From: a virus
Virus record (IMG/VR): IMGVR_UViG_3300042517_001594
Span: 1-50,998 of that record
DNA: 50,998 bases
Reading direction: 5' to 3' (one strand)
In this document: one piece after another, positions 1-50,998 of the stretch
Position numbering within the stretch: the stretch's first letter is position 1
Layout: each line of letters begins with the position of its first letter
The notes under the pieces: generated by a model
What the model saw: only the letters and a program-made list of their open reading frames with translations
Database searches by the model: none
Told to the model about the DNA's origin: nothing
Program-made: the position numbers and the translations under genes

Positions 1-127
1 CGGATGGCGGCGTGAAGAGGCCAACCCAGGTTGAGCCACAGGAACAGGATGCGCCTCATGTGATCGCCCCCGGGTCAGGCCCACCGCAGCCCTGCACCTG
101 CGCCGGACGCGGTTCCAGTTCCGCCAC
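1..127. repeat. Terminal direct repeat, left copy (assembly overlap)
   Basis: These 127 bases are identical to bases 50872-50998. The overlap length equals a common assembler k-mer (127), so it is most likely a circular-contig overlap and not a biological terminal repeat. The gene that starts at base 59 on the minus strand continues into the right end (stop at 50670), which confirms continuity. Confidence 0.95.
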
Positions 128-19537: not shown

Positions 19538-19609
19538 CCCCGCCTCCACTGGCCACCGCGGCCGCTGGTGGAGGTTTCACCCACAGCCGCACCAGGAGCA
19601 AGACCGAAC

Positions 19610-31797: not shown

Positions 31798-32223
31798 ATG
31801 CGAACCAGGACCGCCCGCGTTCTTGGTGTGGCGGCTTTGGCCGCATGCACCACCATCGCCATCGCAGCCGTCAACCACATGTACACCGTGCCGGGGGGGA
31901 TTGTGCTCCCCCCGCGCACGCTGCCGGGGAAGGCCATTGCCCACCCGGGCCGCGACTACTCCACGTTCATCCTGGAGCACGACAACCCGGACGCGGGCTC
32001 CCAGCCCATGTGGGTGTGCGGGCGGAACGCGGGCTGGCCCGACGGCGGCTTCACCTCCGCGGTGATTTCCCAGAGCTGCCACAAGAGGTGCCTGGACCTC
32101 ACCGTGTGCCCGTTCGGTCCGGGGTTCTCCGGTGACGTGAAGCAGGAGGGCGGCCCCGTGGCGTTCTGCGACGGGCCGGGCACCGACGCCGGCTGCCGCG
32201 TCAAGCTCTCGTTCGGGAGGTAA
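31798..32223 (+). CDS. Exported protein, possible lipoprotein
   Basis: Encodes 141 residues. The N-terminus has basic residues (MRTRTAR), a hydrophobic core (VLGVAALAA) and LAAC, a lipobox-like match with Cys 17; the following residues stay hydrophobic. Mature part has five Cys (CGRNAGW, SCHKRCLDLTVC, FCDGPG, GCRVK), suggesting disulphides formed outside the cytoplasm. It begins a run of three genes with export signals inside the virion module. It could be a periplasmic or outer-membrane-attached phage protein. No family is recognised. Confidence 0.7.
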   Translation: MRTRTARVLGVAALAACTTIAIAAVNHMYTVPGGIVLPPRTLPGKAIAHPGRDYSTFILEHDNPDAGSQPMWVCGRNAGWPDGGFTSAVISQSCHKRCLDLTVCPFGPGFSGDVKQEGGPVAFCDGPGTDAGCRVKLSFGR

Positions 32224-32225
32224 CC

Positions 32226-33092
32226 ATGCAGCGGGTCCTCTTCGCTTTGGCGCTGATGCTGGCGCTGGCATTCGCGCACGCACAGGCCGTTCCTGGGCAG
32301 ACGTTCGGCACCACGTTCCCGGGCGGAATCTCCCTCACCTACCTGGCCACGCAGTTCTGTGCGCGGACCGGGTGCACGCTGACTGGCCAGCAGGTCTTTG
32401 ACGGTGTCTCCGTGGATATCTCCACGGGCACCAACCAAACCCTGACGGTCCAGCCAAACGGCTCCGGGGCGGTTGTGCTGAACGCAACCGGCGGCACCGA
32501 GGTCACGACCCCCAGCACCGGTGCAGTGCCGGCGCTGCTCAACCGAATGCAGGACAACAGCGCTGCGCTGGAGTTCGGATTTGTGCAGCGGCTGGCGTCG
32601 CTCAACGGATTCATCGCCATCGGCAATGCATCCATCACGAACTCCATCTACTCGCCCGGCATTCAGCGCATGTCGTCGGGGTCCACCAACGCATTGGTCT
32701 TTGACATCGCGTATGTGGATGCAACCCAAGACTCCGGCACCCAGCCTGTCTACCTCCTGGACGTGCGGCGAGGGACAGCGACGGGCGACCCGTTCAACGT
32801 GGCAGGCGGTGCCGCCGTCACCACGCGCCCGCTGCTGCGGTTCGCCAACTTTGGCACGTCGTTCCTGGAGTTCTCCGCGGCCAGCAACCTGACGCTGGGC
32901 GGCTCCATGTTTGAGCTTGATGGCGCTGCAACCGTGCTGCCGGCATGCGCCGCTGACGGAGATGTTGGCCGCTTCGTCAACTACTCCAAAAGCAGCGGCA
33001 ACATCCGCGTGACGTGCGGCTGCAAGAAGACGGGCGCCGGCACCTATGCGCGCTACGACCTCTCCACGGGGACCGTGGGGGAGTGCACGTGA
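32226..33092 (+). CDS. Secreted beta-rich protein
   Basis: Encodes 288 residues. MQRVLFALALMLALAFAHAQ is a clear signal peptide with a likely AHA/QA cleavage. The mature part is Thr/Ser/Gly/Val-rich and beta-like (SVDISTGTNQTLTVQPNGSG), resembling fibre or spike shafts, and ends with a Cys-pair segment (CGCKKTGAGTYARYDLSTG). It starts 2 bases after the previous gene and overlaps the esterase gene by 4 bp. A surface-attached adhesin-like role is possible; no family is recognised. Confidence 0.72.
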   Translation: MQRVLFALALMLALAFAHAQAVPGQTFGTTFPGGISLTYLATQFCARTGCTLTGQQVFDGVSVDISTGTNQTLTVQPNGSGAVVLNATGGTEVTTPSTGAVPALLNRMQDNSAALEFGFVQRLASLNGFIAIGNASITNSIYSPGIQRMSSGSTNALVFDIAYVDATQDSGTQPVYLLDVRRGTATGDPFNVAGGAAVTTRPLLRFANFGTSFLEFSAASNLTLGGSMFELDGAATVLPACAADGDVGRFVNYSKSSGNIRVTCGCKKTGAGTYARYDLSTGTVGECT

Positions 33093-34264
33093 GCACGGTG
33101 CTCCTTGCACTGCTGCTGGCGTCACAGGGCGTCGGCATCATCAACGTGGGGCAATCCACGTGCATTGGCACGACCGCAACGCCGGCGCGTACCACCGTTG
33201 ACGACGGGAACTTCCGCTTCACCACCAACGCATTCCTCGCCGGTCTGGATGGTCAGGGCGGCTTCAACAGCACGGGCGTGGACTGGCCGCTCAGCGCGCT
33301 GACGGAAGCCACGTTTGAGTCTCCGTGGTCCCAATCCGCACGGCAGTTCCGCGCTGTGACGGGGTCGCCGGTTACGGTGTTCGGAAACTGCGTCGGCGGC
33401 ATCCAGTACAGCGCAATGAAAAAGGGAACGGTTTCGTTTGACCGTCTCGAGAAGCTGATTGAGGGCTTCGGAGCACGTGTCCCGAATGCGCGTGTCGCGG
33501 CGGTGCTGGCGTACAACGGCGAGGCCAACACGCAGGCGGCCACGCCCCGCGCCACGTTCGCGGCCAACCTTCTGGAGTGGCAAACGGACATCCAGGCCAA
33601 GGTGCGCCTCTCCACGCGCACGGGCGCAAGCACCACGGTGCCGCTTGTTGTGCGGCAGCTGGCGTCGTGGACGCACTACAACACCACGGGGTTCATCGCG
33701 CTTGGGCAGTATGACGCCATGAAGGCCAACCCCGGCAGGATTGTTGTGGCCGGCGGAGGCTATCCGTTCGTCTACTCCGGCGACGGCGTGCACCCCACAG
33801 CAGACGGCAGCTGCCACATGGGCGCAATGATGGGCCGCGTTGCTGGCTTTGTCAGCATGGACCCGTGGTGGCGCCCGCTGATGCCCATCAGCGTCACGCG
33901 CGTGGCCAATGTCATCACGGTGGCATTCAACGTCCCGAGCCCGCCGCTGGTGGTGGATACGACCCTGGTGACGGCTCAAACGAACAGGGGGTTTGAGTAC
34001 ACGGACGCCACCACGTCCGCGTCCATCTCCAGCGTTTCGTGCGGCGCCACCACGTGCACCATCACGCTGAACACGACGCCGACGGGCGGCACGCGGCTGC
34101 TCCGCTACGCGTACACGGGAACCAACGGCGACAACGCGGGTCCCACCGCAGGCCCGCGCGGCAACATCCGCGACAGCGGCGGCAATGCGGCGTCTGTGAC
34201 GTGCAACGGCACGCCCATCCCGCTCCACAACTGGTTGGTGACCTTCGAGGAGGATGTGCCATGA
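33089..34264 (+). CDS. Exported SGNH-type esterase
   Basis: Encodes 391 residues from a GTG overlapping the upstream stop. A hydrophobic start (VLLALLLAS) serves as signal peptide or anchor. SGNH blocks are visible: GQST with nucleophile Ser 23, AVLAYNGEAN around 138-147 (the GxE/N block) and DGVHPTADG with Asp 232 and His 235 (the DxxH block). This is the pattern of the sialate-O-acetylesterase-like carbohydrate esterases. Residues 270-391 form a separate beta-rich domain with a Cys pair (VSCGATTCTITL). It may strip acetyl groups from host polysaccharide, but the signal peptide suggests action outside the cell and not only on the tail. Confidence 0.75.
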   Translation: MSTVLLALLLASQGVGIINVGQSTCIGTTATPARTTVDDGNFRFTTNAFLAGLDGQGGFNSTGVDWPLSALTEATFESPWSQSARQFRAVTGSPVTVFGNCVGGIQYSAMKKGTVSFDRLEKLIEGFGARVPNARVAAVLAYNGEANTQAATPRATFAANLLEWQTDIQAKVRLSTRTGASTTVPLVVRQLASWTHYNTTGFIALGQYDAMKANPGRIVVAGGGYPFVYSGDGVHPTADGSCHMGAMMGRVAGFVSMDPWWRPLMPISVTRVANVITVAFNVPSPPLVVDTTLVTAQTNRGFEYTDATTSASISSVSCGATTCTITLNTTPTGGTRLLRYAYTGTNGDNAGPTAGPRGNIRDSGGNAASVTCNGTPIPLHNWLVTFEEDVP

Positions 34265-34782
34265 CCGACATCCTCCTCTGGGCCAAGGACAACAGCGCAG
34301 ATATTCTGGCCACCCTGGGTGGCGCGGGCACAGCCGGTGCTCTGCTGCGCTGGGTGTTCCCCCGCGCGGTGGAGGCGGGCATCGCCTGGCGCAAGGCCAA
34401 GCGTGAAGCCGCGGACGCCGCGAAGAAGGCCGCGGAAGCCAAGGCCGCAGAGGAAGCGAAGAAGGCCGCGGACGCCAAGGCGGCCGACGAGATGTGGCGC
34501 GCCCAGATGATTAACGGGCTGCAGGCCAACAGCGCGGCGGTGGACGCGCTGAAGCGCCAGATGGAGGTCTTCACCAGCACGCTGAAGGAACACGACGAGC
34601 GCACCCGCGAGACCTCCAAGGTGGTGGCGCGCGTGGACGGATTCCTGGACCGCCTTGAGCGCGCGGAAAGCCACGCCTTCGAGGCCAAGGTTGCCGCGGC
34701 ATCCGCGGAGCGCGCGGTGGCTCGGCTGCAGGGCACGGACGCGTTCGGCAACCCCACCACCAACCCAGGGCGGGGTGGCTGA
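34261..34782 (+). CDS. Membrane-anchored coiled-coil protein (possible holin or spanin-like)
   Basis: Encodes 173 residues. A hydrophobic segment (residues 11-30, ADILATLGGAGTAGALLRWVF) is followed by a basic amphipathic stretch and a very long Ala/Lys/Glu coiled coil (about 40-170). One N-terminal membrane segment plus a coiled coil is the layout of some phage holins and inner-membrane spanins. It follows the exported proteins, which supports an envelope role. It overlaps both neighbours. Assignment is inference. Confidence 0.62.
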   Translation: MTDILLWAKDNSADILATLGGAGTAGALLRWVFPRAVEAGIAWRKAKREAADAAKKAAEAKAAEEAKKAADAKAADEMWRAQMINGLQANSAAVDALKRQMEVFTSTLKEHDERTRETSKVVARVDGFLDRLERAESHAFEAKVAAASAERAVARLQGTDAFGNPTTNPGRGG

Positions 34783-35588
34783 TGGCCTACAACCCGACCG
34801 GTTACCGCGGCATTCAGGAGGCCTGCTACGGGCAGGCTGGCCAGGTCATTGGCGCGTGGGCCGAGAAGAACGGGGTGCTCACCGACCCCAGCACCAGCCC
34901 CGCCATCACCGCCAACGTCTACCGCCCGGGCAACGGCGGTCCGGACAGCACGCCCATTGCGCCCAGCGTGTCCGTCTCCAAGGACGCCACCACCAAGCGC
35001 CTCACGCTCACCCTGGACTGCTCCAACCGCGCCACCTTCCCGCTGGACGAGGGGTACCGCGCGGAGCTCGTGGTCAGCACGCTCACCCACCCGCTGGTCA
35101 TTGTTTTTGACGTGGTTCGGCAGCCGCTGGTGGACCAGGTCCCCGTGCGCGTGGATGACCTGTACCCGCTGCACGTCCAGCTGAAGCAGATGCTGGCCAA
35201 AGCCGCGGTGGAGACGGGCACGTCCGTGGAGTCCGTGGCGGACCGGCTCTACATCATGCCGGCGTGGACGCGCGTGCTGGATTACGTGCGCTCCCGCGGG
35301 CGCCGGCCCAGCCTCATCAGCCCGGCGGGCACGCTTCACCTGATGGCGCTGCACGCCGCCGCGGTGAACGTGTTCAGCGCGTTCAAGCGCGCGGAGGGAG
35401 ACGTCTACGACGGCCTGCGCGCCACGCATGAAGGCCTGTACCAGGAGGCCCTGCGGAACACCGCGCTGCACTACGACGACGCCGACGGGTTCAGCCACAG
35501 CAAGGAGCGCGCGTGGACCCAGCCGCGGTGGTTTGTGGGCAATGACCTCCGCGCCGGGAAGATGCCCCGCCCGCCCAGGGGGTACTGA
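34782..35588 (+). CDS. Hypothetical head-tail connector region protein
   Basis: Encodes 268 residues; both ends overlap neighbours (TGATG). Beta-rich N-terminal half (TANVYRPGNGGPDSTPIAPS; KRLTLTLDCSNRATFPLDEG) and helical C-terminal half (SAFKRAEGDVYDGLRATHEG). By position it may be a connector or tail-attachment protein. No family is recognised. Confidence 0.7.
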   Translation: MAYNPTGYRGIQEACYGQAGQVIGAWAEKNGVLTDPSTSPAITANVYRPGNGGPDSTPIAPSVSVSKDATTKRLTLTLDCSNRATFPLDEGYRAELVVSTLTHPLVIVFDVVRQPLVDQVPVRVDDLYPLHVQLKQMLAKAAVETGTSVESVADRLYIMPAWTRVLDYVRSRGRRPSLISPAGTLHLMALHAAAVNVFSAFKRAEGDVYDGLRATHEGLYQEALRNTALHYDDADGFSHSKERAWTQPRWFVGNDLRAGKMPRPPRGY

Positions 35589-36055
35589 TGGCCACGGTGG
35601 AGGTGTCGGACATCCTGGCGACGGTGGCCACCACGGTCCTTGCCACCACGCCGGCCGCGGATGGCTCCCTTGCGCCGACCTTCACGGAGAATGAGCACGT
35701 GTCCGTGGAGGGCGCCCCCAACGACCGCGGCTTTGACATCTACCTGCGCTCCGGCGGTGAAGAGCAGACCACCGGCCATGAGGGGGACACCGAGGAAGCC
35801 TGCCGGCGGTTCACGTTCATCCTGGTTATTGCCTACGTGCACACCACGGGCAGCGCGCGCTCCATCAGCAGCGTCATCGGACGGGACGCCGTTGCTCTGA
35901 TGGACCGCATTCCGCGCGCCCTGCACCCGGACGGCCATGTGTGCGTCCCCGGTGACTACGACGTGGACGTGCGCACGGACAAAGACGTGGGCGGAAACAT
36001 CTGGACCCTTTCATTGCCGTTCCAGGTGGAGCACCTGGAGACGGTCGAGCCCTGA
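35588..36055 (+). CDS. Tail terminator-like protein
   Basis: Encodes 155 residues. The sequence fits the terminator/minor tail U pattern: an N-terminal helix, a RGFDIYLRSGGEE strand, then RFTFILVIAYVHTTG, a helix (GRDAVALMDRIPRAL) and a final WTLSLPFQVEHLE strand. It lies directly before the tail tube gene, the normal place for a protein that caps the finished tail and joins it to the head. Confidence 0.72.
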   Translation: MATVEVSDILATVATTVLATTPAADGSLAPTFTENEHVSVEGAPNDRGFDIYLRSGGEEQTTGHEGDTEEACRRFTFILVIAYVHTTGSARSISSVIGRDAVALMDRIPRALHPDGHVCVPGDYDVDVRTDKDVGGNIWTLSLPFQVEHLETVEP

Positions 36056-36070
36056 CGAAGGAGAGAGCCC

Positions 36071-37276
36071 ATGCCCGGAAGCGCGCTGGTCAACCGTGTG
36101 GATTACGTGATTGCCGCCAACAAGGACGCCGCAGCGCCGCTGGCCGGAGCGTCGTGGATTCGGCTTCCCACCATTGGCCGCCAGCTGCTCAACAAGGAGC
36201 AACTGGACGACGGGGTGGAGGAGGACAACGAAATCGGCGCCTCCACGCCTCCGCAGCCCACGGTGAAGAAGGCCAGCTACTCCACGGCGGTGCGCCTCTG
36301 GGGCGGGGACAAGAAGTTCGGGGCCACCACGGACCCCACCTCCTGCTTCGCCCAGGGGTTGCTGGAAAACTACTTCGGCATGAGTGCTGACCTGGGGTTC
36401 GGCGGCACCACGGTGTCAGGCTCCAACACCGGCCAGGGGACCGTTGCCGCGCCGCTGGCGGTCACCCTGGCCAGCACCATCACGCCCGGCATGGGCATCC
36501 GGTACGGCCAGAAGGTCCGGTTTGTCCTGTCGAAAGCCACGAACAATCTGGTGCTGAACGCGGCGCTGGGCCTGCCCGTGGCGCCCACCAGCGGTGACGT
36601 GCTGGGCGCGTTCTACTTCCGCCCGACGCTGGGTGAGCGTGCCCAGGTCGTTGGGCTGCAGGTGAAGCGGGACACGCACAAGGACATGGCGTTCTACGGC
36701 GGTGTGTTCGGCCTGAAGCTGCAGAACATGGCGGCGGAGGGCGGCGCGCAGCTGGCCATGGACATGGAGTTCGACAAGTGGCTGGCACCGGTGGACATTG
36801 CGTCCCCGCAGGAAAACCAGTTCACGCACCACGCGCTGATGGTGAAGGGCGGAGACCTCATCATTGGGCAGGATGCGGCAGCCGCCAACCTCTGCTTCAG
36901 TGAAGCGTCCATTGATTTCGGCGTGTCGCGCGAGTGGATTGAGTGCAACGAGGGCGCCGGGGACAACGGACGCGACGGCATCCACATCACCGGTCAGCGG
37001 CCCACCGCCACGGCCAAGGTCTACTACCTGGCCGACCTGTGGACGAAGTACGAGGCCAAGACCGCCGTGCCCGTGATGTTCTCCATGGTACAGCCTGGTG
37101 GCGGCGCCGGATGGGTCGGCGTGTTCTTCCCGAACGCCACCATTGGCGTGAAGGAAGGAACCATCGGCAACAAGGAAAGCCTGGACCTCACGTTCACGGC
37201 GCACGAACCCACCGCCGCGCAGAAGGCCAACGGCATCACCGCCAGCGTCTACTTCTCCGTGGGCAGCGGCATCTGA
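36071..37276 (+). CDS. Major tail tube protein
   Basis: Encodes 401 residues with an AAGGAGAG ribosome site. It is beta-rich and followed by the chaperone pair and tape measure, as tail tube genes are. Typical blocks: a flexible N-terminal loop (residues 40-60), DIASPQENQFTHHALMVKGG, and a Gly/Ser-rich extra region (residues 108-190) that is probably an inserted Ig-like domain. It polymerises around the tape measure to form the tail. Confidence 0.8.
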   Translation: MPGSALVNRVDYVIAANKDAAAPLAGASWIRLPTIGRQLLNKEQLDDGVEEDNEIGASTPPQPTVKKASYSTAVRLWGGDKKFGATTDPTSCFAQGLLENYFGMSADLGFGGTTVSGSNTGQGTVAAPLAVTLASTITPGMGIRYGQKVRFVLSKATNNLVLNAALGLPVAPTSGDVLGAFYFRPTLGERAQVVGLQVKRDTHKDMAFYGGVFGLKLQNMAAEGGAQLAMDMEFDKWLAPVDIASPQENQFTHHALMVKGGDLIIGQDAAAANLCFSEASIDFGVSREWIECNEGAGDNGRDGIHITGQRPTATAKVYYLADLWTKYEAKTAVPVMFSMVQPGGGAGWVGVFFPNATIGVKEGTIGNKESLDLTFTAHEPTAAQKANGITASVYFSVGSGI

Positions 37277-37288
37277 GCGGGGGCGGCC

Positions 37289-37861
37289 ATGGGCGCATTG
37301 TGGAACGAGACCCGCAAGACATCCATCACCAGCACGCTGCGGGGCAAGATTGCGGCGTATGAGCGCCGTCTCTCCAGTGAATCCGAGAAGGCGCTGGAGG
37401 AGGCGGAGCGCGTGGTGCTGGAGAAGGAAATCGAGCGACTCAAGAAGCGCGTGGCCAAGCGTGAGGGAGACCCGCAGTACACCGTCACCATGAAGCACGT
37501 GGGCTCGCTGGAGGACCCGCTGCTGTGGGACTCGCTGCTGTCCCGCCATGAATCCGCCGTGCACCTGTTGGTCTCCAAGGCGCGCCGGGAGCTGGTGGAG
37601 GAACACGGCTCCGCGGATGCCGCGGTGGCGGCGCTGGGTGGCCAGGACTTTGAGCGCGTGGCGGTGGTGCGCGCGACCCGCAGCCCGGAGCACCACCAGG
37701 TCTACGGCCAGCACGTGCGGGAGCTGGTGACCCACGGCCTGGTGGATGGGGAGAAGGAATACGAGCGGCTGTTCCAGCTCGGCGGGCCCAAGCTGTTGCT
37801 GCATGCCGCGGATGAGGTGCGGGCGTTCCAGGAGGTGGACTCGGAAATGGGGGAAGGCTGA
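37289..37861 (+). CDS. Tail assembly chaperone, short form (gpG-like)
   Basis: Encodes 190 residues. Helical N-terminus with coiled coil (RLSSESEKALEEAERVVLEK). The place between tail tube and tape measure is that of lambda gpG. The last codons (ATG GGG GAA GGC TGA) hold a possible slippery run, and the -1 frame continues into an otherwise start-less downstream frame. Chaperones of this kind hold the tape measure during tail assembly and are not in the virion. Confidence 0.82.
   Translation: MGALWNETRKTSITSTLRGKIAAYERRLSSESEKALEEAERVVLEKEIERLKKRVAKREGDPQYTVTMKHVGSLEDPLLWDSLLSRHESAVHLLVSKARRELVEEHGSADAAVAALGGQDFERVAVVRATRSPEHHQVYGQHVRELVTHGLVDGEKEYERLFQLGGPKLLLHAADEVRAFQEVDSEMGEG
37849..37855 (+). 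promoter_or_regulatory. Candidate -1 slippery site (GGGGGAA)
   Basis: The heptamer is phased G GGG GAA in the upstream frame. A slip of one base backwards lets the P-site tRNA re-pair perfectly on GGG. It lies two codons before the upstream stop. Lambda uses GGGAAAG at the same place in its tail genes; this heptamer is less studied. Confidence 0.5.
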
Positions 37862-38208
37862 GGGCCTGGCTGTGGAAGAAGCCAGGCCTCTACTCCTGCA
37901 AGGACTGCATGCAGAACCCACGGCTCTTGGAACTCAACGGCATGTGCGGCGGCGTGGCGCCCGGGCGGCTGCCCATCCTGGTGGGTGACGCGGTGGACCG
38001 GTGCCCCACGGCCATGGGGATGCAGGACCCGGAGGTGCTGCGCGCGGCCAATGCCCTGGCGCGCGCGGGCATTGACCCCAAGGGCAACCCGGGCGTGGTG
38101 GAAGGGCTGCTGGGGGATGACGTTGGTTTGACGCTGCCGCCGCGCTGGCGGGCCATGTGGAAGCTGTCCCGCGTCTGGCGCGCGGCATTCCTCGCGGGGG
38201 CCGAATGA
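37856..38208 (+). CDS. Chaperone extension reached by -1 frameshift (gpT-like)
   Basis: About 117 residues read in the -1 frame relative to the upstream gene. After the shift it reads LRAWLWKKPGLYSCKDCMQN and on, coding-like from the first residue, with Cys pairs CKDC and C. The first ATG in this frame is at 37909, after the conserved-looking start, so independent initiation would lose it. A fused product of about 306 residues fits lambda gpGT. The stop overlaps the tape measure start (ATGA). Confidence 0.72.
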
Positions 38209-40259
38209 GCACCATCCCGACGGTGTATGCCATTGAGGTGGACGGGGCCGACGACGCCCTGCGCGCTTTCCAGTCCGTGGATGGCGCGCTGAAGAACAAC
38301 GCCACCACCGCAAGCGGCGCTGCTGACGCATTCAAGAAGACCTCCGATGAAATCTCGGACGGCTTTAAGAAGGCCAAGAATGACGCGGGCGTCCTGGGCA
38401 GCACGGTCGCATCTGTCCTGGGCGGCGCCGTGGATGACCTTGCAGGGATGGCGGCTGCCATTGCGGGCGGCGGCGTGGGCGCAGCGGCGGGCAGCATTGT
38501 CGGCGCCCTCGCCCTCGCCACAAGGGCCTGGGAGGTCTACCGCACCGAGCAGGGGCGCGCGCGCAAACAGGCTGAGGAAGTGGCGGCCGCGGTGGATGCG
38601 GTGCTGGCGGGGCTTCAGGGAATGGCGCAGGGGTCGGCCGACCCGTTCAGCGACAAGAGCGCGCAGCAGCTCCGGGACATGGCCACCGCGCAGGGCAAGG
38701 TTGTCCAGGCCATCGAGATTGAAATCGAGAAGCAGCGCGAACTGAAGCGCATTGCTGAAGAGCGCCTGAACTCGGTGTCGTTCCGCTTGATGGCAATGCC
38801 TGATGACGTGGCCAAGGTCATCATGGAGATTGAGCGCGCGGAGCGTGCGGCCAGCGAAACCATGGGCCGGCTGTACAACCAGCGCTCCATCCTGCGGGCC
38901 ACCCAGGAAGCAGAGCTTCAGAAATCCTTTGTTGAGCAGGTGGACCTGGACGACAAGGCCGCGAAGGACAAGGAGGCCAAGGACAAGGCCGCAGCAGAAG
39001 AGGCCAAGCGCAAGGCTGCTGAGCGGAAGCGCCTGGCCGACGACGAGTTCAAGCACACCGCGCAGCTGGAGCTGACGCGCGTCCAGATTGCGAACGCCAC
39101 CGCGGAGGCGCGCGCCAAGAAGGCGCGGGAACTGAGCGCGGTGCTGGCCAGCCTTGAGATGGCCGACTTCAACCGGATTGTGGCGCGCAATGAACAGATA
39201 GAGCGCGACGTCCTGGCTGTGGAGGCCCGGGCGTCGGGTGACCGCCGCACCGCCCTGCGGGAAGACCTGGACTTTGAGCAGGCCGTGCAGCGCCAGAAGC
39301 TGGACTCGGAGCAGAACGTCAGCGTGGAACGCACGGCCATCCTCCGGCGTTCCCAGGATGCGAACTGGGCGGCGCTGGAGCGGCGCCTTGCAGCCGAGGA
39401 GCGCGCCGAGCGGGCGTCCGCCATGCGCAGGGCGGGCACCGCGGACAACGTGATTGCCGAGACCCTGAAGCTGGATGAGGAGGCCACCGAGCGCCGCATC
39501 CAGAACCGTCAGCGGGAGACGGAAGCTGCGGTGGACGCCCTGCATCGCCAGGAGGCGGCGGCGCGGCGCACGGCGGTCACCAACACCATCCTGGAAGCAT
39601 CCCTGTACGCGTACGGCGCGGCGGTGGATGCGGTCATGCCCATTGTGGATGACTTTGCGTCCAGCGTCCGCACGCTGGGTGAGCTGAACCGCGAGAACTG
39701 GCAGCAGTACCTCATTGAAACGGACCAGCTGCCGGCGCTGGTGGCGGCTCGCATCCAGGCGTTTGCCGCGGCCTTGGCAGCGGAGGCCTTCAAGAAGAGC
39801 GCCATGGAAGCAGCCAACGCGGGTGCAGACGTGGCCGCCGCTGCCACGTCCTACGCGCGCTACGACACTGTGGCGGGCTCCATGTATTTGATTTCCGCAG
39901 GCAAGCACGCGGCGGCGGCGGCGGGCTACGCGGCGCTCGGCGGTGGCGCAGCTGCGGGCGCGGTGGGCCTTGGTCTGGCGCGTCCGCTCACGCGTGACGA
40001 GCAGGACCGTGCGCGCGCCGATGACGACCGGGGCGACCGCGGGTCGGAGGGTTCCCGCGGCGGAGGCGGCGGCCGCACCGGCCGGAACAGCATGGGTGGC
40101 GGCGGCGGTGGTGACGGGACGTTCAGCGTCCAGGTCATCACCAACAACAGCGGCGTGAACATCCAGCCACGCAACGCGCGTGAAGCCGCGCGGCCGGTGG
40201 CGGCCGCCATGCGTGCGGCCCGCCAGAGCACGTATCTGCAGCGGCAGATGGGAGGCTGA
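38205..40259 (+). CDS. Tape measure protein
   Basis: Encodes 684 residues from MSTIPTVYAIEVDGADDALR. Mostly long helix with coiled coil (residues 180-470, many Ala/Glu/Lys/Arg) and a hydrophobic Gly/Ala segment (about 75-110, VLGGAVDDLAGMAAAIAGGG). A further hydrophobic stretch lies near 570-590. It sets tail length; at about 1.5 A per residue it predicts a tail near 100 nm. It is followed by tail tip genes, as expected. Confidence 0.88.
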   Translation: MSTIPTVYAIEVDGADDALRAFQSVDGALKNNATTASGAADAFKKTSDEISDGFKKAKNDAGVLGSTVASVLGGAVDDLAGMAAAIAGGGVGAAAGSIVGALALATRAWEVYRTEQGRARKQAEEVAAAVDAVLAGLQGMAQGSADPFSDKSAQQLRDMATAQGKVVQAIEIEIEKQRELKRIAEERLNSVSFRLMAMPDDVAKVIMEIERAERAASETMGRLYNQRSILRATQEAELQKSFVEQVDLDDKAAKDKEAKDKAAAEEAKRKAAERKRLADDEFKHTAQLELTRVQIANATAEARAKKARELSAVLASLEMADFNRIVARNEQIERDVLAVEARASGDRRTALREDLDFEQAVQRQKLDSEQNVSVERTAILRRSQDANWAALERRLAAEERAERASAMRRAGTADNVIAETLKLDEEATERRIQNRQRETEAAVDALHRQEAAARRTAVTNTILEASLYAYGAAVDAVMPIVDDFASSVRTLGELNRENWQQYLIETDQLPALVAARIQAFAAALAAEAFKKSAMEAANAGADVAAAATSYARYDTVAGSMYLISAGKHAAAAAGYAALGGGAAAGAVGLGLARPLTRDEQDRARADDDRGDRGSEGSRGGGGGRTGRNSMGGGGGGDGTFSVQVITNNSGVNIQPRNAREAARPVAAAMRAARQSTYLQRQMGG

Positions 40260-40261
40260 CC

Positions 40262-41290
40262 ATGGGATACCCCGTCTTCTGCGCCAGCCACACGGTGCGC
40301 GGCACATGCAACGTGGGGATGGTGGATGGCAGTGGCGTCAACATCCAGGTGAACATTCCGGAAGGCATCTACTGGACGGATTCCAGGGTCGGCGCCATCA
40401 AGGCCGCGGACTCCACGGACCTGCTCGGGCGGTTCGCCTACCTCTTTGAGCTTGCGGACACGCTGTACACGTACACCGCCACCTACAACAGCTTTGTGGC
40501 GGGCATTGCCGCTGCGCTGTGGGATTGCGGTGTAGCCGGCGCAGCGAAGTTCCGTCCCTCAGGTGCGAACGCGGAGGGCTCGCGCGCCTACAAGCGCCTG
40601 GGCGCGCCACCGCTGCGCACGTCTTCGGCCATGGCTCCATCCCTGGATGGCGGGGTTATCCACGGGGTGTGGTCACCGGGTGACCGCAAAGAACGCACAG
40701 CGTCACGGCCACCGAAGCGTCCCAACGTCGGCGCGGTGATGAATGGTTTCAACGGGCAGGCATGGCCATGGTCCCTCGGTGAAGAGCCGGGCAACCGCCT
40801 CATGGAAATGCGCCACGTGGACCGCATCTACGCGCGCAACGAGACCGGGCTCATCAACAACGGCACCGACTCCGACACGGACTTCACGTTCGAGTCGGTG
40901 ATGTGGCCGTTCCTGCGCCGCGGGGAAATGGTCCGCGTCTACGACTCGGAAGCCACGGTGCGGTACCTGACCGCGGCCCTCACGGACGTTGCAGTGGTCG
41001 CGTCGGTCAACAGCGGCACCGGCATCACCAACGGCGCCGCCATCTGGATTGATGGCGAGGCGGTGCAGGTGGTGAGCGGCGGCGGCAGCACCACGCTACA
41101 GATTGAGCGCCCCAACCCGCTGCCGCACAACAAATACAGCCCGGTCAGCACCAAACACATGGCCACCTACGTGCTGGCCCCGGACGGCGGCAACATCAAC
41201 CTGATGGAGTTTGACCCACCGCGGATGGCGTACAACCAACCCACGTACAACATGATGCTTTCGCTGCGCCGCACCGAGTGGGAGGCGTGA
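40262..41290 (+). CDS. Tail tip (distal tail-like) protein
   Basis: Encodes 342 residues, 2 bases after the tape measure. Mixed beta-rich sequence with Trp and Tyr; a DRIYARNETGLINNGTDSDT stretch and a FTFESVMWPFLRRGEMV block. First gene after the tape measure usually makes the distal tail ring. No named family is certain. Confidence 0.68.
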   Translation: MGYPVFCASHTVRGTCNVGMVDGSGVNIQVNIPEGIYWTDSRVGAIKAADSTDLLGRFAYLFELADTLYTYTATYNSFVAGIAAALWDCGVAGAAKFRPSGANAEGSRAYKRLGAPPLRTSSAMAPSLDGGVIHGVWSPGDRKERTASRPPKRPNVGAVMNGFNGQAWPWSLGEEPGNRLMEMRHVDRIYARNETGLINNGTDSDTDFTFESVMWPFLRRGEMVRVYDSEATVRYLTAALTDVAVVASVNSGTGITNGAAIWIDGEAVQVVSGGGSTTLQIERPNPLPHNKYSPVSTKHMATYVLAPDGGNINLMEFDPPRMAYNQPTYNMMLSLRRTEWEA

Positions 41291-41294
41291 GCCC

Positions 41295-43646
41295 ATGACG
41301 TACCAGACCGCCATTGACGCTGGGCTCAGCATGGCCGACCTGGAAGCCACGCTGTTGATTGACGGCATCCCGCTCCTGTTCGGCACCAACAGCAAGCAAG
41401 TGCTGGACACCAGCACCACGTTTCTGAACGGCCCCGCCAGCCTGACCAGCATCAACGCCCTGGTGAAAGACAGCATCAAGCCGGAGGGCTCGGAGCTCGA
41501 CTACGACCAGATGATTGTGGGGCCCTCTGGGTTGTCGCTGTCCATCCGGTCCACGCCCACCATTGACCGCTACTTTGAGCGCCGCCGCACGCCACGCACG
41601 CGGCTGACCGCCGCCATCACCAACGCGGACACCACGCTGAACGTGCAGAACACGTCGGGCTTCAGCGCGGGTCGGGTGGTCTACGTGGACCGCGAATGCA
41701 TCCTGGTGGGCGGACTCGGCACCAACACGCTGACCACCGTGACGCGCCGTTACGCCGCGCTCGCCGTGAGCCAGGCGCCGCAGGCGCATCAGGATGGCGC
41801 GTTTGTGCAGGGCTCACCCACGCATTTGCGCGGCCGGGTGGCGGAGCTGCGCTTCCACGTGAGCGACCAGAGCCGCCTGGTGGGCCGGTACGTCCTGGAC
41901 AGCTACTCCTTCAATGGCGTGAACGGAACGTGGGACCTGCAGTTTGCCGACGCCATGCACATGGTCCTGGAGCGTCCGCTGGCCACCGGGATGGACGGCA
42001 TCCGCGTCCAGGCCATTGGCGTCACGGCCAGCAGCGACACACCGTCGCAACCGCTCCTGAAGCTCACGTTGGCGGGGGACTGGCAGTGGCTGCCCACCAC
42101 GCTCACCGGTGGGCTGCGTGTTGTCATTACGCTGGGGGAAGACGTCAACGACGGCAAGCCCATCATCACGCCGGTGGTGAGCATCAACGGCACGGGAGAC
42201 CTGTTCATCAAGCACGATGCCATCACCGCGTGGCTCGGGGATGCGGTGAGCGGTGGTGCAACCGGCACCACCGACCCAACCGGCCCCCTTGGACGAGACT
42301 TCTCCGTGGACGGCATCTCATGCCGCCTCTGCTACGTGCTCAACGGCCCACCGATGCGGGACCTGCTGCGGGTGCTGCTGTCCGACCGCGGCAACGGTGA
42401 CAACAACGCCACGTATGACGTCCTCTTCGGCACATCCACCAGTGGCGCCACGGTCACCACGGTTTCTGATGGCGCGCTGGACCGCCGCTTTGGTGCGGGC
42501 ATCCGCGCCGCCATGGTGGACCTGACGACGCTGGCCAACGACGACCTGCTGGCAGAGCAAGGCCTCGGCTGGTCCTACCTGCTGGATTCCACAAGGCAGG
42601 CCAAGGTGATTGACCTGCTGACGGAGGTGGGCATCCAGCTGGGCGGGTTCTTCTTCCTGAATGCGGATGGAAAGCTCAGCTTCAAGCGGCTGTCCGGCCT
42701 GTACGCGAGCCCGTCCGTGGTTGCGCGAATCCCGCAGGAACACGTGGACCTCAACGAGTCCCACGTGTCGGTGGATGATGAGTCTCTGGCGGTGCATTCC
42801 ATCATCATCGAGTGCAACAGCGACCCATTGACGGACAAGCTGATGGGCAAGGTCGTCATCCGGGACATGCGGATGTACGAGACCTTCCGTGATTCCGCGT
42901 CGGCAGTGACATGGAAGCTCAAGGGCCTGGTGGTGGATGTGCCGCAGCAGAATGGCGGCCAGTCCGCGGTGACCACGGGCAGCATGCCGGCCATCTACGA
43001 AGAGCTGGTGGCGCGGTTCGACAAGATTGTGCACCGGCGCATGGTGGGCGTGCCGGCCTACACGCTCACACTCCCCTTCCGGTACCACACGCTGATTCCC
43101 GGGGACGTCATTGCGGTGACCTGCGAGGCGCTGCGTACGTTCGCTGGCGGCACGCTGAACAACACCCCGTTGGAGGTGGTGAGCGTTTCCGGCATTGACC
43201 TGGAGTCCGGCACCGTCACCATCACCGCGCACGGCACGTGGGCGGCGAAGCCGGTGAGCCCATCCAGCGTGGTGCAGTCCTGGGCAGGTGGCCCACCGCA
43301 GGTCATCACGCTGGCGACCAACCACCGGTACGGCGGCGGCGCTTCACCGGGCGACTACTGGCCCGCGGGCTGGAAGGTGCGCCTCCTGGACAAGTCCGCG
43401 GACCCGCCGTTCTCCGTGGCGTCCGGTGTCCTCACGGTCACCGCAAAGACGGCCACCACGGTCACCGTGACGGGCACGGTCGGATTCACGCCCGTCAGCG
43501 GGGACATCCTGGTGCAGGCCCAATACGACAACGCAGACAGCACCGTGCAGAACACCGCGGGGCTTGCGCAGCGAGACTACGCTTTCCAGGCGGACACAGG
43601 TGGGCGACTGGGAACCGTCAACAACGACGCAGACACCTGGGGTTGA
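41295..43646 (+). CDS. Large tail tip/baseplate hub protein
   Basis: Encodes 783 residues, the largest of the tail tip set. It is beta-rich throughout, with an RGRVAELRFHVSDQSRLVGR block and a VDLTTLANDDLLAEQGLGWS region. Size and place fit a hub or tail-associated protein that closes the tube and contacts the fibres. No lysozyme-like catalytic motif was found. Confidence 0.72.
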   Translation: MTYQTAIDAGLSMADLEATLLIDGIPLLFGTNSKQVLDTSTTFLNGPASLTSINALVKDSIKPEGSELDYDQMIVGPSGLSLSIRSTPTIDRYFERRRTPRTRLTAAITNADTTLNVQNTSGFSAGRVVYVDRECILVGGLGTNTLTTVTRRYAALAVSQAPQAHQDGAFVQGSPTHLRGRVAELRFHVSDQSRLVGRYVLDSYSFNGVNGTWDLQFADAMHMVLERPLATGMDGIRVQAIGVTASSDTPSQPLLKLTLAGDWQWLPTTLTGGLRVVITLGEDVNDGKPIITPVVSINGTGDLFIKHDAITAWLGDAVSGGATGTTDPTGPLGRDFSVDGISCRLCYVLNGPPMRDLLRVLLSDRGNGDNNATYDVLFGTSTSGATVTTVSDGALDRRFGAGIRAAMVDLTTLANDDLLAEQGLGWSYLLDSTRQAKVIDLLTEVGIQLGGFFFLNADGKLSFKRLSGLYASPSVVARIPQEHVDLNESHVSVDDESLAVHSIIIECNSDPLTDKLMGKVVIRDMRMYETFRDSASAVTWKLKGLVVDVPQQNGGQSAVTTGSMPAIYEELVARFDKIVHRRMVGVPAYTLTLPFRYHTLIPGDVIAVTCEALRTFAGGTLNNTPLEVVSVSGIDLESGTVTITAHGTWAAKPVSPSSVVQSWAGGPPQVITLATNHRYGGGASPGDYWPAGWKVRLLDKSADPPFSVASGVLTVTAKTATTVTVTGTVGFTPVSGDILVQAQYDNADSTVQNTAGLAQRDYAFQADTGGRLGTVNNDADTWG

Positions 43647-43649
43647 ACC

Positions 43650-45059
43650 ATGACGGTGCAGGTTGGGCTGGACTTCCGCGGTGTGCTCGCCTCGCTCTTG
43701 CGCATCGGAGAGAACGTTGAGGCATCCGTGCTGCGCGGCATCCTCGCAGACATGGGGTACATCCAGGAGCGCCTGTCTGGCCTCAGCGCGGCACGCGTGG
43801 GGGACGTCCCCGCCAACGCGCAGCATGAGCACATTGAAGCGGGCAACCGCATGGTGCGCCAGATTGCGTCCTGGATGTACGGGACGCGCGGCCCCAATTC
43901 ATCCCTGGATGCGCTGAACGGAGCGAGCCTCGCGTACGCTGCGCCCTTCTCCATCCAGGAGACAGACTCGACGACGGCCACCGACGGCATCCCGTGCATG
44001 GCCCCGCTTTTCTTCTTGGCTCCGGCCACCGTTGGTTACGACACGCTGTTCCTGTTGGACTGCAACGGTGACCCAGGAATGACGGTCACGCTGCGCACCG
44101 AGGCCGGCGCGGCGGTGGCGGGCTACGTGAACGTCCCGTTGGTGGCTCCGCTGAACCTGGGCAACCAGACCGCGGACATCTTCATGCTGGAGAGCGGCAT
44201 CCAGAATCCGTGGGGCATGTTGTTCCGCGTGGCCACCGCGGGGCTCTACTGGCTGGACGTCAAGACCACCCTGCGCCCCGGCAACAGCCTGCGTGAGGTG
44301 TACGCCGGCCTCATCGTCCAGGTGGTGGACCGCAACCGCGGCGGCGCTGACGAGCTGCAGTGGGTGGCGCCGCCGGCAGCGTCCAACCTCGCCACGGTGG
44401 GCGACCCGGGCGCATCCAACGCCTACCAGATTGTGGATGACATCCTGGCGCCCTCGGGTGGTGACGCGGCCCTGCACGCGGCGCTGCTGTCCATGCTGGC
44501 GGAGAACGTCAACCGGATGATTGAGCAGGCCACCGGCAGGCCATGTCCGGGCAACGTCACGCTCACCGTGCCTGGGCACGCGCACACCGGTGCGGCCGGG
44601 AGCGGCCCGGAGATTGAGTGGCCGCACGTGGTGCTTGTCACCAGCGGCTTCTATGACCGCACGCCCACGGAGGCTTACGGGCAGCACGTGCTGGCGCCCA
44701 ACAGCAGCAACAACACCACGCTGCGAACCATCGCGGTGGGGCGCACGTTCATGCCCAACTCGGTCAACAGCGCGCTGGCCAACAGCAAGCTCAAAGTGGC
44801 GCTGCTGGTCTTCTGCGAGACCGGCAAAGGCAACCGCGCGGAGGCCAACGCAGAGTTCGGCGCCACGGTGCTGACGTTCCGGGGCACCGCGGGCGGGGCT
44901 GCGTTGCCGGAGGTGCTGAAGGTCCCAACCGCTGGGGCCAATGCGTTTGAATACACACCGAACGCGGCCAACGGGTGGTCGGTGTCGCAGAAGAGTGCCA
45001 CCGCTGGCAGCGCGGGCCGCACTTCGGTGCTGTCTGCCTGCTTCTACCTGGACAGGTGA
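43650..45059 (+). CDS. Tail fibre/tip-associated protein
   Basis: Encodes 469 residues. A helical N-terminal part (residues 1-80), a beta-rich middle (VTLRTEAGAAVAGYVNVPLV) and a NVTLTVPGHAHTGAAGSG stretch with HxH, a motif seen in fibre proteins. The C-terminal part is again beta-rich. Probably a receptor-binding complex component. No named family. Confidence 0.68.
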   Translation: MTVQVGLDFRGVLASLLRIGENVEASVLRGILADMGYIQERLSGLSAARVGDVPANAQHEHIEAGNRMVRQIASWMYGTRGPNSSLDALNGASLAYAAPFSIQETDSTTATDGIPCMAPLFFLAPATVGYDTLFLLDCNGDPGMTVTLRTEAGAAVAGYVNVPLVAPLNLGNQTADIFMLESGIQNPWGMLFRVATAGLYWLDVKTTLRPGNSLREVYAGLIVQVVDRNRGGADELQWVAPPAASNLATVGDPGASNAYQIVDDILAPSGGDAALHAALLSMLAENVNRMIEQATGRPCPGNVTLTVPGHAHTGAAGSGPEIEWPHVVLVTSGFYDRTPTEAYGQHVLAPNSSNNTTLRTIAVGRTFMPNSVNSALANSKLKVALLVFCETGKGNRAEANAEFGATVLTFRGTAGGAALPEVLKVPTAGANAFEYTPNAANGWSVSQKSATAGSAGRTSVLSACFYLDR

Positions 45060-45065
45060 ACAACG

Positions 45066-45755
45066 ATGGCCGGCGAAATCATCAGCGGTTCGAGAACCCT
45101 GCGCACGCTTCTGCCCCAGAACGTGCGGAGCAATGCGGCTGCCGAGGGCTACACGCTGGACAAGATTGCGGGGAACCTCCGCTGGCTGCGTGAGTACATT
45201 GATGGGGACAACGAATCCTCGGACTGGGGCATCATCAACCCGTGCGCTCCGCCCACGCCGCTCAACGGCAACATGCTGCCGGGCCACGACCACAGCGGCG
45301 GCATCATGGGCGTGCCCCAGAAGCACACCGTGTGGCAGCACGCGTGGGGTGACCAGGTCAACACGGCCATTGTGAACCACGAAGCGCCGCGCGCCACCGA
45401 GCCCATTGGGAGCAACCCATGGTGGGTGGTGAAAAGCCCCATGGGTCCCGCCTGGGTCCCGCCCGGCGCCATCTACCGGGCGCTGCAGCCCACCGTGACC
45501 ATCCGCGTCGTCACCGCCTCATGCACCGTGGAGGTCACGGCGGAGCGCAACGGCGCCAGCGTTCTGACGTCCGGGACGTACGCCGTCGGCCAACATACGA
45601 TTTCGCTGGGCATGCTCCCGTTCACCCCGGGCGCCTTCAACCAGTGGAACCTTGAAGTGCTGGTGGCGACCTGGGGCACCGGGGCGTTCGTCTACCTGCT
45701 GCACCACGGCATCCACCAGATTCACGACAACCCCGCGCCCACCATCACCATCTGA
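45066..45755 (+). CDS. Tail fibre/tip-associated protein
   Basis: Encodes 229 residues. It has a GHDHSGGIMGVPQKHTVWQ segment (HxHxGG, common in fibre shafts that bind metal) and a beta-rich C-terminus (RVVTASCTVEVTAERNGASV). Likely forms part of the tail tip or fibre base. The HxH motif also occurs in the upstream protein. Confidence 0.68.
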   Translation: MAGEIISGSRTLRTLLPQNVRSNAAAEGYTLDKIAGNLRWLREYIDGDNESSDWGIINPCAPPTPLNGNMLPGHDHSGGIMGVPQKHTVWQHAWGDQVNTAIVNHEAPRATEPIGSNPWWVVKSPMGPAWVPPGAIYRALQPTVTIRVVTASCTVEVTAERNGASVLTSGTYAVGQHTISLGMLPFTPGAFNQWNLEVLVATWGTGAFVYLLHHGIHQIHDNPAPTITI

Positions 45756-45762
45756 GGACACC

Positions 45763-46164
45763 ATGCCCGGACTCAGCAGCACCGTTCGCAACGCACGCAT
45801 GACAGCCCTCAGAGACGCCATTGATGGTGGCGCGGGCCCCGGCGTGTTCCGGTTCTACACAGGCTCACGGCCTGCCACCGGCGGGACGGCAACCACACTG
45901 CTGGCGGAGGTCACGTGTTCGGACCCGTGCGGGGCCGTGGCCAGCGGGGTGCTCACGTTCTCCGCGTTCACGCAGGACGCATCCGCCAACGCAACGGGTA
46001 CCGCTGTGTGGTGCCGCGTCACGGATTCCGCCGGGACGTTCGTGGGCGACTTCTCCGTGACCGCCACGGGTGGCGGCGGGGAAATCACGCTGAGCACCAC
46101 CAGCATCGTCACCGGCCAACCCGTGCAAATCACGTCCCTCACCATCACGGAAGGAAACCCATGA
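45763..46164 (+). CDS. Small beta-rich tail protein
   Basis: Encodes 133 residues from MPGLSSTVRNARMTALRDAI. The pattern, an N-terminal helix then FRFYTGSRPATGGTATTLLA, TFSAFTQDASANATGTAVWC and a final VTATGGGGEITLSTTSI, is typical of small phage proteins found among fibre genes. Two Cys (CSDPC) are close together. Role is inferred from position. Confidence 0.72.
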   Translation: MPGLSSTVRNARMTALRDAIDGGAGPGVFRFYTGSRPATGGTATTLLAEVTCSDPCGAVASGVLTFSAFTQDASANATGTAVWCRVTDSAGTFVGDFSVTATGGGGEITLSTTSIVTGQPVQITSLTITEGNP

Positions 46165-47045
46165 CCCCACGCACCCGCATCACCCTCGCGCTGTTCGCAC
46201 TCCTCGCCCCGCTCACCGCGCTGGCCGCCATCACATCGCTGGATGGCGTTGTGGCTGGCATGCGTCCGCCGCTGGAGGTGCTGAAGGTGGGCGCCATCAT
46301 GGAGGCGGTGGGCGTGCGGCATTCGTTCTTCTACACCACCGGCGCACCGGGCGCGGCTGCGGCCCCTAGCCCCGGAATCAACGGCGCGGCGTTGACAACA
46401 TATGCAGGGCAGGTGCCCTTCACCAACCCGGTGAGCGGCAACACGTACTTGGCGCGCTTCTCCGCTGCAGCGTCGGTGGCGGGCCGCGTGTTCCTCTACG
46501 ACCGCCTGTGGCACAACAGCGGCATTGCCGTCGCAACGACGACGCTGCAGGCCATCACCACGCCCACGTGGCCGGCGCGTGATGTGGACGGCAGCACCAA
46601 CGGCGTGGGCGTCATGTGCGCCATTGAGGTGAGCACGGCCACCACCAACGCGGGTGCCATCGCAAACACCACGCTCAACTACACGGACCAATCCGGGAAC
46701 ACCGGCAACGTCGCCACCATCACGTCATTCCCCGCGACCGCAGTGGCGGGCACGTTCGTCCCGTTCCAGCTTGCCTCGGGCGACACCGGCATCCGCGCCA
46801 TCACCGCAGCCAGCGGTGGCGGCATCACGCTGGGTACGTCCTACGGCGGCGGCGCCATCCACCTGGTTTGCTACCGCTTCATCGCTGAGCTGGAGCTGCC
46901 CATCGCCAACACCGGCAACGCGGTGGATGCCATCACCAGCGGCTTCCCGCGCCTGTACGACAACACCGTCCCGTTCCTGGTGTGGCTGCCCACTGCCACC
47001 ACCGCCGTCACGGTTTCCGGCGCCATCGTCTTCACCCAGGGGTGA
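46161..47045 (+). CDS. Exported protein in the tail module
   Basis: Encodes 294 residues; ATG overlaps the upstream stop. MTPRTRITLALFALLAPLTALA is a clear signal peptide (likely cleavage after ALA). The mature part is Thr/Ala/Gly-rich, beta-like and almost free of charge, like fibre or autotransporter-type shafts. It is the fourth export-signal protein in the rightward operon. No family is recognised. Confidence 0.7.
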   Translation: MTPRTRITLALFALLAPLTALAAITSLDGVVAGMRPPLEVLKVGAIMEAVGVRHSFFYTTGAPGAAAAPSPGINGAALTTYAGQVPFTNPVSGNTYLARFSAAASVAGRVFLYDRLWHNSGIAVATTTLQAITTPTWPARDVDGSTNGVGVMCAIEVSTATTNAGAIANTTLNYTDQSGNTGNVATITSFPATAVAGTFVPFQLASGDTGIRAITAASGGGITLGTSYGGGAIHLVCYRFIAELELPIANTGNAVDAITSGFPRLYDNTVPFLVWLPTATTAVTVSGAIVFTQG

Positions 47046-49805: not shown

Positions 49806-49978
49806 TGGTACGCCTCCCAGGCCGCTTCCCAGACGTCCAGCGGCAGGCGCAGGGCAGCACGGCAACCGGGCGCCCGTCCACGTGCGCGCGCCACCTCCAG
49901 CATCAGGCGGTAGGCCAGTGCTCGGCTGATGCTGTGGCGGGCCGCCACGTCGGAAGCGGTGAGGTCTGGGGTGTTCAT
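49619..49978 (-). CDS. Excisionase-like helix-turn-helix protein
   Basis: Encodes 119 residues from MNTPDLTASDVAARHSISRA. The first 55 residues look like an excisionase/MerR-type winged helix (LTASDVAARHSISRALAYRL; a basic wing with LPLDVWEAAWEAY). The C-terminal 62 codons overlap the start of int in another frame (49619-49805), which is long for such overlaps. It may direct excision together with Int. The overlapping tail is basic and may be non-essential. Confidence 0.6.
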   Translation of the reverse strand: MNTPDLTASDVAARHSISRALAYRLMLEVARARGRAPGCRAALRLPLDVWEAAWEAYQCQGETGCISEGASGGRVSTTPTGRRSASPRTARTRPQLRLLPGGSNGKPRIRITQPRRKPA

Positions 49979-50930: not shown

Positions 50931-50998
50931 GTGATCGCCCCCGGGTCAGGCCCACCGCAGCCCTGCACCTGCGCCGGACGCGGTTCCAGTTCCGCCAC
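50872..50998. repeat. Terminal direct repeat, right copy (assembly overlap)
   Basis: Exact second copy of bases 1-127. Removing one copy leaves a 50,871-bp circle. Features touching bases 1-127 exist once in the real molecule. Confidence 0.95.

What the first reader, a model, noticed from the sequence alone, without database searches (positions are those of the whole stretch)
31798..34264. Run of exported proteins, including an SGNH esterase, inside the virion operon
Three adjacent genes between head and tail genes begin with export signals (one with an LAAC lipobox-like site), and a fourth (46161-47045) sits among the fibre genes. Virion proteins assemble in the cytoplasm and do not normally have signal peptides. 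These products may act outside the cell: the esterase could deacetylate surface polysaccharide to block superinfection, free progeny after lysis, or change the lysogen surface. The following gene encodes a membrane-anchored coiled coil, so the block may be one envelope system.
Basis: partly seen in the sequence, partly recalled or inferred. Interest (0 to 1): 0.72.

Follow-up and report, generated by a model that had tools for sequence, protein, structure and literature searches.

The report
Export signals on phage fibre-type proteins
This complete bacterial-virus genome puts secretion signals on four late proteins, including a sugar-esterase and a particle-type protein that in about 130 relatives has no such signal, which suggests that the virus sends pieces of its own attachment machinery out through the host envelope, as a few unrelated viruses also seem to do.

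Summary
In a complete 50.9-kb temperate tailed-phage genome (127-bp terminal repeat), three adjacent late genes (31798, 32226, 33089) and one fibre-region gene (46161) begin with Sec-type signal peptides; the one on the esterase (33089) is the weakest. The rate exceeds chance (3 of 28 strict, P about 3e-6). The 391-aa product is an SGNH/SASA esterase whose catalytic residues are conserved. Its relatives are C-terminal domains of tail fibres (phrog_4201, 5e-59). The 46161 protein is the clearest case: about 130 relatives start M-AITTLDG with no signal peptide, and this phage carries an in-frame ~60-nt signal-peptide graft at exactly that point, in a genome with no second copy. The block adjoins holin-like membrane genes.

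Following this up, signal peptides also sit in front of fibre-type genes in unrelated phages (Rctr197k, L086/L169, L167, L013, L080), though rarely: 2 of 34 and 0 of 119 fibre N-termini in two motif surveys. Best reading: fibre-derived proteins re-targeted by Sec to act on the envelope late in infection (receptor deacetylation or masking). A more novel reading, loading onto virions during exit, is not excluded. No export or virion data exist.

The parts
31798..32223 (+). Cys-rich 141-aa protein of unknown family with signal peptide (about residues 1-23); 7 Cys
   Evidence: ORF and SD; SP rule strict; no family or phage homolog
32226..33092 (+). 288-aa protein with canonical signal peptide (cut after AHA or AQA); fibre-like low-complexity beta repeats (inference)
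   Evidence: no family or phage homolog
33089..34264 (+). 391-aa SGNH/SASA esterase, GTG start, short uncharged leader then beta-1 and nucleophile
   Evidence: phrog_4201 tail fiber protein 4.9e-59; SASA 1.2e-4, below Pfam cut-off; 28 phages by tblastn; triad alignment
33155..33157 (+). codon of nucleophile Ser23 (GQS)
   Evidence: invariant in alignment A1
33782..33793 (+). codons of DGVH (Asp232, His235)
   Evidence: D and H invariant in A1
34261..34782 (+). 173-aa N-terminal hydrophobic segment plus coiled coil, possibly a lysis-type membrane protein
   Evidence: phrog_1009 weak 0.0064; Rctr197k 9517-9840 hits the same family 0.011 beside holin/spanin-like genes; L146 has TM genes in this place, one with phrog_689 holin 0.0029
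46161..46226 (+). signal-peptide graft, 22 codons, absent from the relatives
   Evidence: DNA alignment with L010; N-termini of relatives
46227..47045 (+). mature part of a beta-rich phage protein family located in the fibre region; Cys153 and Cys237
   Evidence: loci; model pLDDT 67; BFVD matches mainly uncultured Caudovirales proteins
1..127 (+). direct terminal repeat (with 50872-50998): genome is complete

Best explanation
These are late proteins of fibre or virion type that have been re-targeted through the host Sec pathway. The SGNH enzyme, whose relatives are the tips of tail fibres, is made as a free exported esterase that removes acyl (probably O-acetyl) groups from envelope or surface glycans of the infected cell. 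The grafted 46161 protein and the 32226 protein are exported with it and bind or mask the same surface. Acting just before and during lysis, they would destroy or occupy receptors, so that progeny are not lost on debris and related phages are kept out. Shown: signal sequences, catalytic residues, fibre ancestry of the esterase, the precise graft on 46161, co-directional tightly packed late genes, complete genome without a second copy of 46161. Inferred: actual export, substrate, timing and benefit.
For: Signal sequences far above chance. Esterase equals a tail-fibre catalytic domain but lacks the fibre and carries a leader. An exported-type chromosomal SASA esterase, L149, has the same architecture with the signal peptide ending a few residues before beta-1. 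About 130 relatives of 46161 start without a signal peptide, those of the window type exactly where this one ends, and no second copy exists in this complete genome. The two Cys of 46161 occur together in no relative, site 237 being Cys in 0 of 104, which fits disulfide formation after export. Rctr197k independently has a signal-peptide SGNH of the same family after another signal-peptide gene, next to holin- and spanin-like genes. L146 has holin-like genes in the place of 34261.
Against: No experiment; the export call rests on a simple rule. The esterase leader lacks a positive charge. Late-operon expression fits lysis better than protection of a lysogen. 46161 is a single-copy relative of proteins that sit among virion genes, so losing it from the particle would have to be tolerated. 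Lysis-family hits are weak (E 0.002-0.01). Relative L078 is truncated where the three-gene block would lie, so the block's age is unknown.
Confidence: 0.45

Rival explanations
1. Exported fibre proteins are virion parts that mature outside the cytoplasm: Sec exports them, they fold (with disulfides) in the periplasm, and particles pick them up as they pass through the envelope during lysis.
For: 46161 keeps the whole conserved sequence and its conserved neighbours and is the only copy in a complete genome. In L167 and L169 the signal peptide replaces the start Met in front of an intact canonical fibre N-terminus, TTNLNLYKPxxGE, in L167 inside a baseplate operon. Established knowledge: T4 long tail fibres attach last and can be added in vitro.
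Against: No tailed phage is known to me to do this; no virion data. Most phages with the same fibre N-termini have no signal peptide.
Confidence: 0.2
2. The SGNH protein is a lysis helper: a peptidoglycan O-acetylesterase that makes O-acetylated murein cleavable by the endolysin, within a lysis cassette that includes 34261.
For: Position next to holin/spanin-like genes here, in Rctr197k and in L146; SGNH folds include peptidoglycan O-acetylesterases such as Ape1/PatB (general knowledge).
Against: Sequence relatives are tail-fibre tips and surface-polysaccharide-type SASA, not Ape1; no endolysin identified in the block.
Confidence: 0.13
3. The N-terminal hydrophobic stretches are not used for export; they are uncleaved membrane-binding or membrane-penetrating tips of ordinary virion proteins.
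For: Genes lie among virion genes; export has not been measured.
Against: Basic n-regions and A-x-A cleavage sites; clean graft at the mature N-terminus of 46161; Cys content.
Confidence: 0.12
4. Lysogenic-conversion genes of the lambda lom kind, riding in the tail operon and changing the lysogen surface.
For: lom, with a signal peptide, lies between lambda's tail-spike and tail-fibre genes and is expressed in lysogeny (PMC12309495); the phage has an integrase.
Against: Genes are spaced by -4 to +8 nt within the late operon and no + strand promoter-like site precedes them; lom is not a virion-protein homolog with an added signal.
Confidence: 0.1

Closest known systems
phrog_4201 tail fiber protein, C-terminal SGNH domain (fibres of Acinetobacter, Klebsiella, Vibrio and Ruegeria phages)
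   Same: Homologous over 374 residues, same catalytic residues and same C-terminal region
   Different: There it is the tip of a long fibre without signal peptide; here a free protein with a leader
Virus Rctr197k SGNH protein APU88877 (KX853510)
   Same: Signal peptide plus SGNH of the same family, preceded by another signal-peptide gene, next to membrane/lysis-like genes
   Different: 27% identity; extra C-terminal ~250 residues; larger unrelated phage
Lambda Lom and other exported morons (Cor, Llp, SieA type)
   Same: Signal-peptide protein encoded among tail genes, acting at the envelope (PMC12309495; the rest general knowledge)
   Different: Lom is an outer-membrane beta-barrel expressed in lysogeny, not a fibre or virion homolog with a grafted signal
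Signal-peptide endolysins (fOg44 Lys44, Wbeta-clade J5a)
   Same: Phage late proteins exported by Sec; related phages have versions without signal peptide (PMC8878798)
   Different: Peptidoglycan hydrolases of the lysis module, not fibre or adhesin proteins

Membership tests
SGNH/GDSL hydrolase, SASA branch (33089) | Block I nucleophile motif with Ser (GQS) | tested here: met
   G21-Q22-S23 invariant in six homologs
SGNH/GDSL hydrolase, SASA branch (33089) | Block V DxxH | tested here: met
   D232, H235 invariant
SGNH/GDSL hydrolase, SASA branch (33089) | Blocks II (Gly) and III (Gly-Glu-x-Asn/Asp) | tested here: met
   G113 and G144 invariant; window reads NGEAN
SGNH/GDSL hydrolase, SASA branch (33089) | Curated profile score | tested here: inconclusive
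   Pfam SASA E 1.2e-4 but 22.2 bits, below cut-off 24.8
SGNH/GDSL hydrolase, SASA branch (33089) | Esterase activity | not testable with these tools
   needs assay; single-sequence AF2 model failed, pLDDT 33
Tail-fibre SGNH (phrog_4201) | Sequence homology to the C-terminal region | tested here: met
   4.9e-59, residues 17-390 to profile 278-673 of 676
Tail-fibre SGNH (phrog_4201) | Fibre N-terminal domain present in the same protein | tested here: not met
   the profile's first 277 positions are missing; leader instead
Sec signal peptide (31798, 32226, 46161) | Basic n-region, hydrophobic core, A-x-A-type cleavage site at the true start | tested here: met
   SD sites
Sec signal peptide (33089) | Basic n-region | tested here: not met
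   MST with no K or R
Lipoprotein (31798) | Lipobox at the end of the hydrophobic core | tested here: inconclusive
   LAAC present, but the core continues TTIAIAAV
Lom-like lysogenic-conversion protein | Expression in the lysogen | not testable with these tools
   only the absence of a promoter-like + strand site could be noted

The most novel reading that the evidence does not exclude
A scattered class of tailed phages has acquired Sec signal peptides on its fibre-module proteins, exports them, and mounts them on the particle in the periplasm or during lysis, so that part of virion assembly is extracytoplasmic.
Probability: 0.2. Interest if true: 0.9.

Novelty: new variant of a known kind. 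Interest (0 to 1): 0.62.

Why it matters
Tailed-phage fibre proteins are assumed to be cytoplasmic until lysis. Clean, repeated grafts of export signals onto fibre-type proteins, with signal-less relatives as natural controls, mean either that phages turn their own receptor-acting proteins into secreted weapons against re-adsorption and rivals, or that some phages finish assembly outside the cytoplasm. Both are testable by simple fusion and proteomic experiments. The observation also warns annotators that signal peptides on fibre genes need not be calling errors.

Tried and rejected
No relative of the SGNH, 32226, capsid or terminase proteins in IMG/VR at the reach of single-protein patterns, none of SGNH in genomes by the same method, and no DNA match in phages. 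Alignment A1 had no stretch conserved enough to scan with. Profile search of 369 + 289 whole genomes with A1 gave 5 genomes with a match, one a standalone prophage-type SGNH without signal peptide, L147. AF2 of the SGNH alone failed. Foldseek in PDB for 46161 gave only weak jelly-roll capsid matches, E about 1e-3 and TM about 0.17, not used. Idea that high Cys marks the exported SGNH: rejected, the fibre versions also have several Cys. Idea that Rctr197k and this phage share the neighbouring connector gene (34782): not supported. Simple greedy ORF calling missed 32226 because longer antisense ORFs win at 69% GC, so the 1.6% rate is only a rough background. Literature searches found no report of signal peptides on tail-fibre proteins; the library lacks most subscription journals.

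Full report
OBSERVATION. The four genes exist as described. Genes 31798-32223, 32226-33092 and 33089-34264 follow one another with spacings of +2 and -4 nt, and the next gene (34261-34782) overlaps by 4 nt, so they form one translational run in the late operon. No + strand promoter-like site and no + strand terminator-like site falls inside the three genes. A rule requiring a net positive n-region, a 9-residue core of mean hydropathy 2.2 or more and a small-x-small cleavage site is met by 3 of 28 late-gene starts (31798, 32226, 46161), against 10 of 9,864 internal pseudo-starts. Dropping the charge requirement adds 33089. A sibling version of the rule found core and cleavage site in all six E. 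coli test signal peptides, though MalE falls just under the core threshold. It is not SignalP. The window has a 127-bp direct repeat at its ends (1-127 = 50872-50998), so it is a complete phage genome of about 50.87 kb. It has an integrase gene (48537-49865, phrog_1 5e-27).

THE ESTERASE. The 33089 product matches phrog_4201 'tail fiber protein' over 374 residues (4.9e-59) and Pfam SASA below its cut-off. tblastn finds 28 phage records. In the records opened, the domain is the C-terminal part of long fibre-type proteins (Ruegeria 45A6, Klebsiella VIK251, Vibrio VvAW1, Acinetobacter HD01). Among the homologs read, only the window protein and Virus Rctr197k APU88877 replace the fibre by a leader. 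Rctr197k's is MRNLVLTLGCILTAVCLVGTVTC, and the gene before it begins MLRVLVVLACLLTASVASA. The window leader is short and uncharged, but its geometry (signal ending a few residues before beta-1) resembles that of a chromosomal exported-type SASA esterase, L149 (SHA|EDRVYLLAGQSN). A standalone prophage-type SGNH without signal peptide also exists (L147).

THE GRAFT ON 46161. A family search returned 62, 80 and 7 loci in three scans, with overlap. In the comparison of N-termini, relatives of the window type begin M-AITTLDG or close variants, often with a stop codon only a few codons upstream, exactly at the residue that follows the window's A-L-A cleavage site. Only L009 (a contig identical over this gene) has the signal peptide. 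L062 was flagged by the crude rule at an upstream alternative start of a long-N-terminus homolog; I discount it. The DNA alignment with L010 (71% identical protein) shows a single in-frame gap of about 60 nt that corresponds to the signal-peptide coding stretch, with conserved DNA on both sides, including the end of the preceding conserved gene 45768-46164. L078 (68% identical) is collinear with the window from 34782 to 46164 and also lacks the signal peptide. The complete genome has no second copy. Cys153 and Cys237 are the only cysteines of the window protein. Site 237 is Cys in 0 of 104 relatives and site 153 in 4 of 107. A new pair fits disulfide formation outside the cytoplasm but is not proof. 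The family is beta-rich (pLDDT 67) and its good matches in BFVD are all uncultured Caudovirales proteins. That it is a virion protein is inferred from its neighbours, not shown.

NEIGHBOURHOOD. Gene 34261 (hydrophobic N-terminus, coiled coil) hits phrog_1009 weakly (0.0064). In Rctr197k a gene hitting the same family (0.011) lies in a cluster with a holin-like (phrog_1299, 0.0016) and an Rz-like spanin (phrog_2466, 0.0076) gene just after the signal-peptide SGNH. In L146, the left end of L078's contig, the place of 34261 is taken by two small membrane proteins, one with a holin hit (phrog_689, 0.0029). These are weak hits, but three contexts agree that this is a membrane or lysis-type position. 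L146 begins there, so whether that lineage has the three-gene block cannot be told.

HOW GENERAL. Reading the N-termini of other genes in the fetched loci showed signal peptides on fibre-type genes in unrelated phages, often in runs of two or three. L013 (4754 and 5830) and L080 (4495, 5510, 6201) have homologous SP + [AG]KI[ST]EY... fibre-type proteins (42% identity over 59 residues); in L013 they lie a few hundred bases downstream of the baseplate genes phrog_6 and phrog_203. L086/L169 (1225, 3672, 4238) begins its fibre ...SVLA|GSYTTNLNLYKPSVGEVGYG. A scan of IMG/VR for the fibre N-terminal motif TTNxNLxKPxxGE found 34 contigs. In 32 no signal peptide is seen and the start codon, where it is covered, lies a few residues before the motif. 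In two, L169 and L167 (MKKILTIVLSVFVAALIAYA|GTYTTNLNLYKPSSGESGWA), a signal peptide takes its place. L167's fibre gene lies between baseplate genes (phrog_6 8e-62 on one side, phrog_587 1.5e-44 on the other). A second motif gave none among 119 examined. So the graft is rare but seems to have arisen several times. This survey is small, uses a hand-made rule, and L013, L080 and L086 were found through relatives of 46161. That these proteins are fibres rests on their N-terminal motifs and positions; most hit no annotated family.

MECHANISM. Best reading (0.45): fibre-derived proteins re-targeted to the envelope, the esterase stripping acyl groups from glycans so that receptors on the producing cell and its debris no longer hold progeny or rivals, the others binding or masking. 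Main rival (0.2): exported fibre proteins return to the virion during exit; the intact fibre N-termini in L167 and L169 and the single copy of 46161 argue for it, and the absence of any precedent known to me argues against. Lysis help by murein de-O-acetylation (0.13), uncleaved virion tips (0.12) and lom-like lysogenic conversion (0.10) remain open.

KNOWN OR NEW. Exported phage proteins among tail genes are known (lambda lom, PMC12309495), as are signal-peptide endolysins (PMC8878798). I found no report of signal peptides grafted onto tail-fibre-type proteins in the open-access library searched; subscription journals are mostly absent. I therefore call it a new variant of a known kind.

Noticed in passing
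1-127 and 50872-50998: 127-bp exact direct terminal repeat: the window is a complete genome of about 50.87 kb, assembled with an overlap.
   Followed up: yes
L167:1722-2309 (-), L169:1135, L086:1225-5551, L013:4754-6540, L080:4495-8015, L144:3199-3840, L021:9009-10349: Signal peptides in front of fibre-type genes of unrelated phages, often two or three in a row; in L167 inside a baseplate operon.
   Followed up: partly
L013:4012-4737: A conventional fibre-like gene (MHKIDSPNATGANEFTDGDPALG...) without signal peptide precedes the signal-peptide genes, so those may be auxiliary fibre parts.
   Followed up: no
18917-19549 (-): Another signal-like N-terminus (MLVVVLVALLGAG) with Cys-rich stretch and a C-terminal hydrophobic region, between early and late genes.
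   Followed up: no
5655-7073 (-) and 20294-20488: The C-terminal part of the AAA-domain protein (residues 400-464) recurs at 75% identity at 20294-20488: a partial duplication.
   Followed up: no
9300-10340 (-): C-5 cytosine DNA methylase (Pfam 2.6e-39).
   Followed up: no
L086:6498-8825: Three tandem genes of the 46161 family in one phage, none with a signal peptide.
   Followed up: no
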